From Dokdonella sp. (GTDB lineage Bacteria > Pseudomonadota > Gammaproteobacteria > Xanthomonadales > Rhodanobacteraceae), in NCBI GenBank assembly GCA_023228465.1, contig JALOBC010000031.1, positions 1 to 36,007 of the forward strand: DNA of 36,007 bases. Direction: 5' to 3'. Positions 1,624 to 6,799 of this stretch are shown piece by piece. The translations under genes and the position numbers were made by a program. Below the pieces are notes generated by a model. It was not told the origin of the DNA. It saw nothing but the letters and a program-made list of their open reading frames with translations, and did no database searches. The stretch's first letter is position 1, and each line of letters opens with the position of its first letter.

Positions 1624-1709
1624 ATGATGTCTGATCGTGGTACGACCAACATGGCTGCATGTGGATTGCCCGCCCGGGAACGGGCGCGTCGCGTCGCGGG
1701 GTGCGCACC

Positions 1710-3665
<1,956 letters not shown>

Positions 3666-3798: not shown

Positions 3799-4467
3799 TC
3801 AGTCCTCCTGCCAGACCACGCGCGCCTTGTACAGGCTGAGGGCGGATCCCTCGCAGGCGCCCCCGCCAAGCGCGAGATTGATCGAGTAGCCGCAGCGGGC
3901 CGGATTGGCGTAGTAGCTCGGGATTGCGCTCCTGTCGAAGAAGCGTCCCGGAGACGGCCCACCCGCCGCCTGGCTCCTGACCTGCGCGAGCACGGTCTGC
4001 GACGGATTCCCGGTGTGGCTTTCGTCCATGCAGGTTGCGAGCAGGAAGGCAGTAATGTCCTTCGGCGAGGCGTCGTAACCCCACAGGTCCAGGAACATCA
4101 GTCGATGGCCGGATGGCACGTGCACGACGGCCGAGGCGAGGCTTGGAGCGGCGCCGGCCGTGCATTGCAGGGTGCCCTGGCCGGTGGTGTCATAGCCGAC
4201 CGAACTGGACGCCATGCGGAAATCGTCACCCGTCACCGAGTAGGACGCGGCGTCATCTTCGTGGCCGCCCAGCGGCCGGACGGGTGCAGCCATGTCCGCC
4301 GGGTGATCGGGTAGCAGGCGCCAGACGTCCGTGGCATCGGCGGGAAACCCCATTGCGGCAAGTGCGGCAGGATCGATGACCGGAACCGCTTGGCTGCCCG
4401 CGCGGGCAGCCAGGCTCAGCAGCAGACCGGCGAGCACCAGGAGTGGAATGGAACGGATCGCCTTCAT
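3799..4467 (-). CDS. Exported four-cysteine protein, third of a tandem paralogous trio
   Basis: Not a family I recognise. The 222-residue protein begins with a signal peptide (MKAIRSIPLLVLAGLLLSLA, probable cleavage after ARA at 23), so it should be exported. The mature part has exactly four cysteines, at 102, 146, 192 and 205. Shared landmarks with the two genes upstream are DLWGYDAS before the second cysteine (LLATC), a T-V-L run after it, CGY at the third and GGAC at the fourth, then a short hydrophobic strand ending KARVVW. Cysteine spacing of 44/46/13 is nearly that of its siblings. Its ATG lies 2 bases after the stop of the preceding gene, suggesting translational coupling. Two disulfides in a secreted beta-rich domain is my inference. 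Confidence 0.8.
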   Translation of the reverse strand: MKAIRSIPLLVLAGLLLSLAARAGSQAVPVIDPAALAAMGFPADATDVWRLLPDHPADMAAPVRPLGGHEDDAASYSVTGDDFRMASSSVGYDTTGQGTLQCTAGAAPSLASAVVHVPSGHRLMFLDLWGYDASPKDITAFLLATCMDESHTGNPSQTVLAQVRSQAAGGPSPGRFFDRSAIPSYYANPARCGYSINLALGGGACEGSALSLYKARVVWQED

Positions 4468-4469
4468 GC

Positions 4470-5060
4470 TCAGTGCCCCCATTGGCTGAAATCGCTGCGG
4501 AAGATGACGTCGGGATCGAAACTCGTCAGGCGTACGCGGATCAGGCGCAGGTCCGTCGATGCGCAGGCCGCGCCTGGCACGGCGAAGCTGGCTTCCAGGA
4601 AGTAGGCGCACTCGCTGCTGCGCGCGCCGGCCAGGCTGGTCGTCAGCATCGTCGAAAAGCCGCCGGCGGCGCCGCTGGTGCTCGTGCTGGCGAGGATGGT
4701 GCGTTGCGGAATGCCGCCGCCCAGAAAGGGTTGGCAGGCCTCGATGAGCTGCAGCGAGAGGTCGTTGCTCGCGGAGGCGTCGTTGCCCCAGACCTGCACC
4801 GCGACGATTGCATGGTCCTCGCGAAGGTCGAAGGGATAGACGAGCATGCGCTGGTCGGCATCCACGCCATTGCGGCAGTAGGCGCCAAGATAGCCGTCGC
4901 GCGCCACGTCGAGCGCGCTGCTGGCGGCAAATCCGGAGCGGCCGTTGTAGTTCTGGAACTCGATACCGTACAGGACTCCGGCGCGTACCTGGACGCCCGC
5001 GGTGGCAAGCAGGGCCGCGAGCAGCAGCGCGGCCTTTGGGGTATGGCTGAGAGCGTTCAT
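4470..5060 (-). CDS. Exported four-cysteine protein, second of a tandem paralogous trio
   Basis: Unrecognised 196-residue exported protein. The start is ATG 5060 (MNALSHTPKA), with GGAG 8 bases upstream; the in-frame GTG at 5069 overlaps that GGAG and is less likely. A signal peptide (core AALLLAALLATAG) ends near VRA at 25-27. The mature protein has four cysteines at 62, 109, 151 and 166, spacing 47/42/15. VQVWGNDAS precedes the second cysteine, and the segment TILASTSTSG closely matches TILGSTSTAG in the first gene. The tail DPDVIFRSDFSQWGH resembles the I-F-x-x-x-F-E C-termini I recall on secreted proteins of this lineage; that is memory, not a search. It lies 15 bases after the first gene and 2 bases before the third, in one apparent operon. 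Confidence 0.8.
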   Translation of the reverse strand: MNALSHTPKAALLLAALLATAGVQVRAGVLYGIEFQNYNGRSGFAASSALDVARDGYLGAYCRNGVDADQRMLVYPFDLREDHAIVAVQVWGNDASASNDLSLQLIEACQPFLGGGIPQRTILASTSTSGAAGGFSTMLTTSLAGARSSECAYFLEASFAVPGAACASTDLRLIRVRLTSFDPDVIFRSDFSQWGH

Positions 5061-5075
5061 GGGCTTCACTCCGGT

Positions 5076-5729
5076 TCAGGGCAGGGCGTACTCGACGCGC
5101 ACCTTGTCGAGGAACAGGGCGCCACCGACGCAGGGGCCGGAAATCGAGCTGGACAGGCGCACTCGCGCGAAGTAGCGACAGACGCCGCGATCGACGACCA
5201 CCGGTGCGCCGCTCAGATCCAGCGTGACCACGAAGTCGCCGGGTGTGCCGGCCGTGGATGTACTGCCGAGGATGGTCGTTGTCGGCGTGGATGTGTCGCC
5301 GAAGCCGCGGCACGTCGACATGAGGAAGACGCTCATGTTCTCGGTGGCCGTGTTGTCCAGGCCGAACACGTCCAGGTACGTGATGCGGGCCTGGTCGGGC
5401 AGATCCAGCGTCGCCGTGGCGAACGGATCGGTGGCGCCGCTCAAGCAGTAGAGGCTGGGCGGCGCGCCGGCGTGCCGGAACGCGCTGGTGCGACCGACGA
5501 AGGCGGTGCCGATACGGGTCAGGTATTCACCGCCCGGCCAACCGCTCGGCGCATTGCGGCGTTCGCCGTCCGCTTGCCGGGCACCTGTGCGCACCCGCAC
5601 GGTGACGGCCGCATCGTCGATGCCGGCGGCGGCGCGTTCGTCGGCATTTGCCGGCCGGCTGGCCGGATCGGCCGCCGCGAGACTGCAGCCGATCGCGAGT
5701 GCGGCCATTGCAATGGATCGTGCGCTCAC
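5076..5729 (-). CDS. Exported four-cysteine protein, first of a tandem paralogous trio
   Basis: Unrecognised 217-residue exported protein and probable lead gene of the operon. I choose the GTG at 5729 because AGGAG lies 6 bases upstream; a longer reading from 5783 adds an arginine-rich stretch without signal character. Residues 1-20 form a signal peptide (cleavage near LAAA-DP). A variable segment of about 70 residues precedes the shared domain. Mature cysteines are at 95 (SLYC), 140 (MSTC), 184 (VCRY) and 200 (GPCVGG), spacing 45/44/16. YLDVFGLDNT stands where the siblings have WG-x-D. It is divergent from folP, with 176 bases between them. Function unknown; an extracellular or periplasmic disulfide-stabilised domain is an inference. 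Confidence 0.8.
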   Translation of the reverse strand: MSARSIAMAALAIGCSLAAADPASRPANADERAAAGIDDAAVTVRVRTGARQADGERRNAPSGWPGGEYLTRIGTAFVGRTSAFRHAGAPPSLYCLSGATDPFATATLDLPDQARITYLDVFGLDNTATENMSVFLMSTCRGFGDTSTPTTTILGSTSTAGTPGDFVVTLDLSGAPVVVDRGVCRYFARVRLSSSISGPCVGGALFLDKVRVEYALP

Positions 5730-5905: not shown

Positions 5906-6799
5906 ATGTTTCATCCCGTACTGGATTGCAACGGCCGCGAACTTGCGCTGGATCGCCCGCGCATCGCCGGCATCATCAACGTCACGCCGGACTCGTTTTC
6001 CGACGGCGGACGGCATTTCGATGCCGGACGCGCGGTGGCGCATGGCCTGGCGCTGGTCGAACAGGGCGCGGACCTGCTCGATATCGGGGGCGAATCGACC
6101 CGCCCCGGCGCGCAGGCGATTTCGGCCGACGAGGAAATCGCGCGCGTGCTGCCGGTGATCGAAGCGCTCGCGCAGCAGACGGGCGTGCCGCTCTCGATCG
6201 ATACTTCCAAACCGCAGGTCATGCGTGCGGCGGTCGCCGGCGGCGCCGGGCTGATCAACGACGTCTACGCGCTGCGCGGGGAAGGTGCGCTGGATGCCGC
6301 TGCGGCCTTGGGTGTGCCGGTGTGCCTCATGCACATGCAGGGCGAACCGCGCACCATGCAGGATGACCCGCATTACGAGGACGTGGTCGGCGAGGTGCAC
6401 CGCTTTCTCGCCGAACGCCTGTTCGCCTGCCAGATGGCAGGCATCGACAAGCGCCGGATTCTCGTTGATCCGGGCTTTGGCTTCGGCAAGACGCTGGCGC
6501 ACAACCTCGCCCTGCTCGCCGCGCTGGCGCGTTTTGCGGAGCTGGCCCCGGTGCTGGTCGGGTTGTCGCGCAAGGCGATGATCGGCACGCTGACCGGGCG
6601 CGAGGGCGGCCCCGCGCGTGCTGCCGGCTCGGCGGCGGCGGCGCTGGTGGCAGTGCAGAACGGCGCCGCCATCGTGCGTGTGCACGATGTCGCCATCACG
6701 CGCGACATGCTTTGCGTGTGGCAGGGCGTCACGGCCGCCGCCCCGCCGCAGCGCCAGTCGGCAACGCCGGCGAAGGCGTCACTGTGGGACGAGGACTGA
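5906..6799 (+). CDS. folP: Dihydropteroate synthase
   Basis: FolP condenses 6-hydroxymethyl-dihydropterin diphosphate with p-aminobenzoate to dihydropteroate in folate synthesis, and is the sulfonamide target. The 297-residue protein carries the family signatures in order: GIINVTPDSFSDGG at 22-35, IGGESTRPGA, DTSKPQVM, then DPGFGFGKT and GLSRKAMIG, closing with VRVHDVAITRDM. The start MFHPVLDCNGREL at 5906 gives the usual length; the frame is open further upstream, but that part lies across the intergenic region. A short extra tail after the last motif is rich in Ala, Pro and Gln. No ribosome-binding site is visible; the promoter element sits 6 bases before the ATG. Confidence 0.96.
   Translation: MFHPVLDCNGRELALDRPRIAGIINVTPDSFSDGGRHFDAGRAVAHGLALVEQGADLLDIGGESTRPGAQAISADEEIARVLPVIEALAQQTGVPLSIDTSKPQVMRAAVAGGAGLINDVYALRGEGALDAAAALGVPVCLMHMQGEPRTMQDDPHYEDVVGEVHRFLAERLFACQMAGIDKRRILVDPGFGFGKTLAHNLALLAALARFAELAPVLVGLSRKAMIGTLTGREGGPARAAGSAAAALVAVQNGAAIVRVHDVAITRDMLCVWQGVTAAAPPQRQSATPAKASLWDED

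What the first reader, a model, noticed from the sequence alone, without database searches (positions are those of the whole stretch)
3799..5729. Tandem trio of exported four-cysteine paralogues inserted between ftsH and folP
Three consecutive minus-strand genes encode signal-peptide proteins of 217, 196 and 222 residues that share no family I can name but are related to each other. Each has exactly four cysteines in its mature part, spaced 45/44/16, 47/42/15 and 44/46/13. Around them recur [VL]-[FW]-G-x-D before the second cysteine, a T-I/V-L segment after it, C-x-Y at the third and C near a glycine cluster at the fourth. Gene spacing of 15 and 2 bases implies one operon. Overall identity is low despite the common scaffold, suggesting old duplication with fast divergence. 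They sit where ftsH and folP are commonly adjacent, so this is a lineage-specific insertion. A secreted, disulfide-stabilised domain family with an unknown extracytoplasmic role is the inference.
Basis: partly seen in the sequence, partly recalled or inferred. Interest (0 to 1): 0.7.

Follow-up and report, generated by a model that had tools for sequence, protein, structure and literature searches.

The report
Three-gene cassettes of secreted four-cysteine proteins
The three neighbouring genes are one copy of a repeated three-gene cassette that makes three related but distinct, apparently exported proteins of an unnamed family, and the middle protein alone ends in a short tail resembling a tag seen on many other proteins of these bacteria, so the three may well act together outside the cell.

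Summary
In detail: three exported-looking paralogues, four mature cysteines each, in one tight run. I found 18 complete A-B-C cassettes in seven genomes (four in this one), always in the same order. B and C each form one clade (C with moderate support); A is the remainder. Within a cassette A, B and C are no more alike than across cassettes, and their trees mirror each other, so the cassette is inherited as a unit. AlphaFold models of A and B show the same ten-strand order with cysteines at the same places, and resemble sandwich domains, carbohydrate-binding modules among them. Five C proteins lack cysteines 1 and 4 together, pointing to disulfides 1-4 and 2-3. Only the second gene carries a C-terminal tail, [DE]-x-[IL]-F-x-x-x-F: 17 of 18 cassettes by pattern, the last by eye. 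It looks like a worn form of a tag, D-x-[IV]-F-x-x-G-F-[DE], present 22 times in this genome against 0 in the reversed control. No Pfam or NCBIfam family matched. Best reading: a three-subunit secreted or surface complex, B carrying the label; complex and ligand are inferred. The ftsH-folP gap is a variable site.

The parts
5076..5729 (-). Gene A: exported-looking four-cysteine beta-sandwich protein, 217 aa, GTG start, N-terminal extension with RPANADERAAAGIDD
   Evidence: AlphaFold model m17e3457afa30
4470..5060 (-). Gene B: exported-looking four-cysteine beta-sandwich protein, 196 aa, short N-terminus, the only member with the C-terminal tail
   Evidence: AlphaFold model m53fbba9463a3
4488..4517 (-). 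Tail of B: residues 182-191, DPDVIFRSDF; resembles the genome-wide tag D-x-[IV]-F-x-x-G-F-[DE]
   Evidence: (F187 and F191 invariant in 18 B rows, R188 nearly so); the strict tag itself is absent from the window even with one mismatch
3799..4467 (-). Gene C: exported-looking four-cysteine protein, 222 aa, N-terminal segment DPAALAAMGF..DVWR; not modelled
1659..3665 (+). ftsH, flanking gene (convergent with the cassette)
   Evidence: homologues, some cut, in 16 of 16 genus genomes
5906..6799 (+). folP, flanking gene (ATG at 5906)
   Evidence: name from recognition of the sequence

Best explanation
The three genes are one copy of an inherited cassette. It makes three different subunits, A, B and C, that share one disulfide-braced, carbohydrate-binding-module-like beta sandwich. 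They are probably made from one transcript, exported by the Sec route, oxidised in the periplasm (disulfides 1-4 and 2-3), and assembled into one heteromeric complex at or outside the cell surface. B supplies a C-terminal tail related to a tag that these bacteria put on many other, probably exported, proteins; A and C, without it, are held by B. The complex most likely binds a surface or matrix ligand, perhaps a polysaccharide. Shown: fixed cassette, distinct types, co-inheritance, tail on B only, cysteine scaffold, same strand order in models of A and B. Inferred: one transcript, export, the complex, its place, the role of the tag, sugar binding, the fold of C.
For: Order A-B-C in 18 of 18 complete cassettes. 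Tree: B one clade (99/95; 97% of 200 bootstrap trees), C one clade (88/75; 89%), A the rest. Distance matrices of A, B and C correlate at 0.85-0.87, 0 of 5000 shuffles as high, and at 0.81-0.83 after pruning to 12 cassettes; identity within a cassette (19-23%) equals that across cassettes (19-24%), so no mixing between types is seen. dN/dS 0.16-0.52 in 15 of 15 pairs. Tail on the second gene only: 17 of 18 cassettes by pattern plus L041 by eye; 5 of 5 looser triplets by pattern; 8 of 10 looser pairs by pattern, L055 by eye, L029 with a like string 17 residues before the end; no first or third gene of these arrays has it. Strict tag: 22 in the own genome against 0 control; 32 of 52 examined lie within 15 residues of the stop. 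Tag and family go together: 33 of 35 family-bearing genomes against 107 of 313 others, Fisher p 2e-12. Foldseek for A: CBM22 first, then a gingipain adhesin domain, CBM86, CBM35 (24 matches at E<=0.001). Cys1 and Cys4 are missing together in 5 of 18 C proteins, in two separate clades.
Against: No evidence of physical contact. A is not shown to be one clade (2% of bootstrap trees) and C's support is under the usual bar. Models rest on 9 sequences (mean pLDDT 70; sandwich blocks mostly 74-92 with dips to 56-69); TM-scores to CBMs are 0.32-0.44 of the query. For B the first matches are a viral capsid protein and meprin alpha (3 at E<=0.001), CBMs follow; TNF-type and phage-tail folds also appear. 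The tail of B keeps G before the last F in only 3 of 18 (L036, L039, L041), so it may not act as the tag. Export of tagged proteins is weakly supported: a crude signal-peptide rule is met by 12 of 18 with the start side in view and by 19 of 44 control frames. Genomes are related, so the tag-family association is inflated by descent. Mirrored trees are also expected if the cassette is merely inherited whole. No neighbouring gene ties it to a pathway (by eye).
Confidence: 0.48

Rival explanations
1. Three independent secreted lectin-like proteins kept together only for co-expression; each binds a different ligand and they never form a complex.
For: Each has its own signal-peptide-like start and full sandwich; identity between types is low; four divergent cassettes coexist in one genome, which fits ligand diversification.
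Against: Fixed order in 18 of 18 cassettes, and one tail per array, on the second gene, also in looser triplets and most looser pairs, look like division of labour.
Confidence: 0.29
2. Pilin-like subunits that polymerise by donor-strand exchange, as in chaperone-usher or Csu pili; the N-terminal extensions of A and C would be donor strands.
For: Small cysteine-bearing beta sandwiches in tandem; A and C have extensions before the domain.
Against: No usher (PF00577) in the own genome, 99.98% complete, while the control rings in E. coli; SCPU pilins (PF05229) match in 2 of the 7 cassette genomes only, at other places.
Confidence: 0.04
3. A secreted multi-component antagonism or toxin-like system, diversified between strains.
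For: Three co-inherited exported-looking parts, several divergent copies per genome, patchy presence (6 of 16 genus genomes match the profile, 4 with cassettes).
Against: No immunity gene or catalytic motif noticed by eye; Pfam, NCBIfam and the PDB sequence search gave nothing significant (best PDB match E 0.36).
Confidence: 0.08
4. Outer-membrane or matrix structural proteins (coat or layer) whose three subunits tile a surface.
For: Three similar beta-sandwich subunits and one possible anchoring tail would suit a coat.
Against: Patchy distribution; nothing here speaks to abundance.
Confidence: 0.11

Closest known systems
Carbohydrate-binding modules of the beta-sandwich type (CBM22, CBM35, CBM6, CBM86)
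   Same: Foldseek ranks CBM22 first for A and CBM86, CBM35 close behind; several CBMs among the first 50 for B, not at the top; similar domain size
   Different: No sequence match to any Pfam model over its cut-off; four cysteines; separate genes in fixed threes, not joined to an enzyme
PEP-CTERM / exosortase, GlyGly-CTERM / rhombosortase and MYXO-CTERM / myxosortase (PMC1569441, PMC3237569, PMC11980579; seen as search listing and start of abstract only)
   Same: A short signature shared by dozens of proteins in one genome, often at the C-terminus
   Different: Most terminal tags here end within 15 residues after the motif, and 20 of 52 lie further inside; no sorting enzyme known; the helix-and-basic-tail architecture of those systems is from recall
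Chaperone-usher and Csu-type pilins (PF00577 usher, PF05229 SCPU)
   Same: Small exported beta sandwiches with cysteines in tandem genes (recalled)
   Different: No usher in the own genome; family not matched by PF05229

Membership tests
CBM-type beta-sandwich domains | Jelly-roll beta-sandwich fold | tested here: inconclusive
   AlphaFold models plus Foldseek: clear for A, weaker for B, modest TM-scores; C not modelled
CBM-type beta-sandwich domains | Recognised by a CBM family profile | tested here: not met
   Pfam: A and C 0 families up to E 10; B only FANCE at 0.068, under its cut-off
CBM-type beta-sandwich domains | Binds a polysaccharide | not testable with these tools
   needs a glycan binding assay
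Chaperone-usher pili | An outer-membrane usher in the genome | tested here: not met
   0 of 1, own genome
Csu/SCPU pilins | Match to PF05229 over cut-off | tested here: not met
   own genome 0; 4 matches in G049 and G058 lie on contigs other than those of the cassettes
CTERM sorting signals | Short signature at the C-terminus of many proteins of one genome | tested here: met
   strict tag: 22 against 0 control; 32 of 52 within 15 residues of the stop. The tail of B fits it only loosely (3 of 18 keep the G)
CTERM sorting signals | Carriers are exported | tested here: inconclusive
   crude rule: 12 of 18 tagged frames against 19 of 44 control frames
CTERM sorting signals | Signature followed by a transmembrane helix and basic residues | tested here: not met
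   12 of 22 own-genome tags and 20 of 30 from G010 end 0-15 residues after the motif, too short for both
CTERM sorting signals | A dedicated sorting protease | not tested
   phylogenetic profiling not run

The most novel reading that the evidence does not exclude
D-x-[IV]-F-x-x-G-F-[DE] is an undescribed address or docking tag of this order, working without a membrane segment and at the end of a protein, inside it or near its start, and the cassette is a three-subunit surface complex in which one subunit alone carries the address for all three.
Probability: 0.27. Interest if true: 0.8.

Novelty: new variant of a known kind. Interest (0 to 1): 0.55.

Why it matters
An unnamed secreted-looking family is given a boundary, a fold class, a cysteine pairing to test and a strict three-gene organisation. 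If the tag is a sorting or docking signal, dozens of proteins per genome in parts of this order become explainable at once, and the cassette is a small system in which to test it: remove the tail of one subunit and see where three proteins go.

Tried and rejected
Pfam and NCBIfam on the trio and on ten looser kin: nothing over a cut-off. Profile against PDB sequences: best E 0.36. Plasmid and phage records with protein A: no match at E 0.001; other cassette proteins were not tried there. Class-wide profile search at E 1e-5: 0 of 364 genomes outside the order (369 searched, 5 of them in the order). In some searches at most 8 candidates per genome were scored, so counts there are lower bounds. 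Chaperone-usher idea rejected. A crude signal-peptide test of tagged proteins gave 12 of 18 against 19 of 44 control frames, many of which are repeats of the same genes (ftsH, subtilases) from related genomes; it does not settle export. Papers: a search for the tag's letters returned 18 papers whose titles concern other fields; I opened none and guess that the letters are parts of author names. Searches around Dokdonella gave 0 papers and 998 unspecific ones, 15 listed; one on protein sorting listed 15 of 71; one on secreted tandem paralogues gave 0. That tag and family are not in print rests on these five searches only.

Errors of my own: the FolP query was made in a wrong frame and marks only the position of folP; one search shows the real FolP frame for some loci (L031, L104, L106, L107, L109, L112), not for L110 and L111 (G004, G005). 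One search listed L038 and L041 in the wrong order; one search corrects it. One search's pattern, [DEQ] then 0-1 residue, [IVLF][FIY], 2-3 residues, [FL], misses the tails of L041 (DPNHIFRDGF), L055 (DLIFMDNM) and L029 (DSIFVDSF, 17 residues before the end), which I count by eye. Whether the pair in L058 is whole is unsure, since the contig ends 79 bases beyond it. The tally (18 of 61 at E 0.1) includes chance matches. For that and for I lowered the main odds a little (0.50 to 0.48; novel case 0.30 to 0.27).

Full report
What is there. Three minus-strand genes lie between ftsH and folP: A 5076-5729, B 4470-5060, C 3799-4467, with gaps of 15 and 2 bases. No family in Pfam or NCBIfam fits.

It is a cassette. 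A search of the own genome with A gave 14 places at E up to 10; of 61 related genomes 18 matched at E 0.1 or better, many by chance, with tandem clusters in seven. In 17 stretches from those seven genomes plus the window, an iterated profile found 18 complete three-gene cassettes: own genome 4, G002 2, G004 2, G005 2, and in another family of the order G049 3, G058 4, G038 1. Two cassettes stand head to tail in L028. Gaps between neighbouring genes of a cassette run from -4 to 20 bases. The own genome also holds a looser pair in L029.

Position equals type. In a tree of the 54 proteins B is one clade (99/95; 97% of 200 bootstrap trees) and C is one clade (88/75; 89%, under the tool's bar for a firm branch). 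The 18 A rows are what is left; they form one clade in only 2% of bootstrap trees, and the tool warned of long branches, most of all in L041. Distances among the 18 A, B and C proteins mirror each other (r 0.85, 0.86, 0.87; 0 of 5000 shuffles as high; 0.81-0.83 in 12 cassettes after near copies and L041 were left out), and A-B, A-C and B-C identity is about the same inside a cassette as between cassettes. So at least B, and probably all three types, arose before the cassette was copied, and it is inherited whole. Fifteen gene pairs from five pairs of close cassettes show dN/dS of 0.16-0.52.

Cysteines. All 18 A and 18 B have the four; 13 of 18 C do. The other five C proteins (L037, L040, L043 in one clade, L038, L042 in another) lack Cys1 and Cys4 and keep Cys2 and Cys3. 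That is what pairs 1-4 and 2-3 predict. Looser kin with two cysteines (for example L061) appear to keep the first and a late one, by eye.

Fold. AlphaFold with nine sequences gave mean pLDDT 69.6 for A and 70.1 for B; N-termini are low, ten-residue blocks of the sandwich mostly 74-92 with dips to 61-68 in A and 56-69 in B. Leaving aside one poorly predicted strand before the domain in A, both have ten strands in the same order; Cys1 lies in the third, Cys2 at the end of the sixth, Cys3 at the start of the ninth and Cys4 before the tenth in both (read from the DSSP strings). Foldseek against the PDB ranks CBM22, a gingipain adhesin domain, CBM86 and CBM35 first for A (24 matches at E 0.001 or better); for B a viral capsid protein and meprin alpha come first (3 matches at that level), carbohydrate-binding domains follow from rank 5. 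This supports a secreted-type jelly-roll sandwich; it does not show sugar binding, and C was not modelled.

The tail. B, and only B, ends in [DE]-x-[IL]-F-x-x-x-F, in 17 of 18 cassettes by pattern and in L041 by eye. F187 and F191 of B are invariant in 18 rows. Looser relatives in other families of the order are arrays too (17 further stretches). Of their arrays in view, five triplets have the tail on the middle gene; of ten pairs (L029 of the own genome included) eight have it on the second gene by pattern, L055 by eye, and L029's second gene has a like string 17 residues before its end. Cut arrays (L054, L056, L057) and the single L064 are left out; the wholeness of L058 is unsure. In four of the looser pairs (L059, L060, L063, L065) the tail has the fuller form GF[EDQ].

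The tag. D-x-[IV]-F-x-x-G-F-[DE] occurs 22 times in the own genome against 0 for the reversed pattern; 12 lie within 15 residues of the stop, the rest further inside, two of them (L079, L088) soon after what looks like a signal peptide. In the relative G010, 20 of 30 examined (of 135) are terminal. In the order sample 140 of 348 genomes have at least one, up to 135, with the reversed control mostly 0 and at most 3; outside the order 66 of 364 have one or two and none more. Of the 35 genomes of that sample with a family match at E 0.001, 33 have the tag, of the other 313 107 do; shared descent inflates this. Two genomes (G106, G186) show two tags 27 bases apart and two others 33 or 36 bases (its list of places is cut). 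Export of the tagged proteins is likely from their look but a crude rule hardly separates them from controls (12 of 18 against 19 of 44). I read the tag as an address or docking label, and the tail of B as a worn form of it; both are inference.

The site. Of 12 genus genomes with ftsH and its surroundings in view, 11 show what follows it: a cassette in the own genome and G002 (there with a subtilase ending in DRIHADGFD), ftsH-folP adjacency in G013, G004 and G005 (for the last two by position marks only), a subtilase-like gene without a cassette in G009, G007, G012 and G014 (in G012 with about 2 kb unassigned), other or unassigned sequence in G010 and G008; G015's contig ends. The subtilase-like proteins are 61-72% identical to that of G002 (Pfam Peptidase_S8 tested for two of five). 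In G049, G058 and G038 a cassette lies upstream of rlmE, with ftsH behind it in view in two, but by the tree it is not the window's nearest kin. So this is a variable site near a conserved block.

Function. No neighbour is shared by all cassettes (read by eye). No usher exists in the own genome. The best reading is a three-subunit secreted or surface complex with B as the labelled subunit; the strongest rival is three separately acting secreted lectin-like proteins. Complex formation about 0.5, surface or matrix ligand 0.4, sugar as the ligand 0.3, by my judgement.

Novelty. The fold is a common kind; the family, its strict cassette and the one-tail-per-array rule were not found in the searches made.

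Noticed in passing
own genome, 22 places (L073-L094); order-wide counts: A protein tag D-x-[IV]-F-x-x-G-F-[DE], frequent only in part of this order, mostly at C-termini, sometimes internal or soon after a signal-peptide-like start (L079, L088, L128).
   Followed up: partly
G106:C1:1302955-1303007, G186:C106:6085-6137, G126:C3:9229-9287, G069:C1:871659-871720: Two copies of the tag 27 to 36 bases apart, head to tail.
   Followed up: no
L031 7274-9910; L104, L106, L108, L112 after ftsH: A subtilase-like gene whose product ends in the tag or a near form of it often fills the ftsH-folP gap in this genus.
   Followed up: partly
L029 3465-4600 and about 4806: A looser pair of the family followed by an open frame that looks like an IS30-type transposase start (recalled resemblance).
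   Followed up: no
N-termini of C and of the window-type A: A recurring segment like DPAELAALGF or RPATPAERQAAGF before the sandwich, absent from B; similar segments in distant kin (L055, L056), by eye.
   Followed up: no
L032 and L034 upstream of the cassette: An open frame that looks like a serine/threonine kinase (and in L034 an ECF-like sigma factor before it) precedes the cassette in two genomes; recognised by eye only.
   Followed up: no
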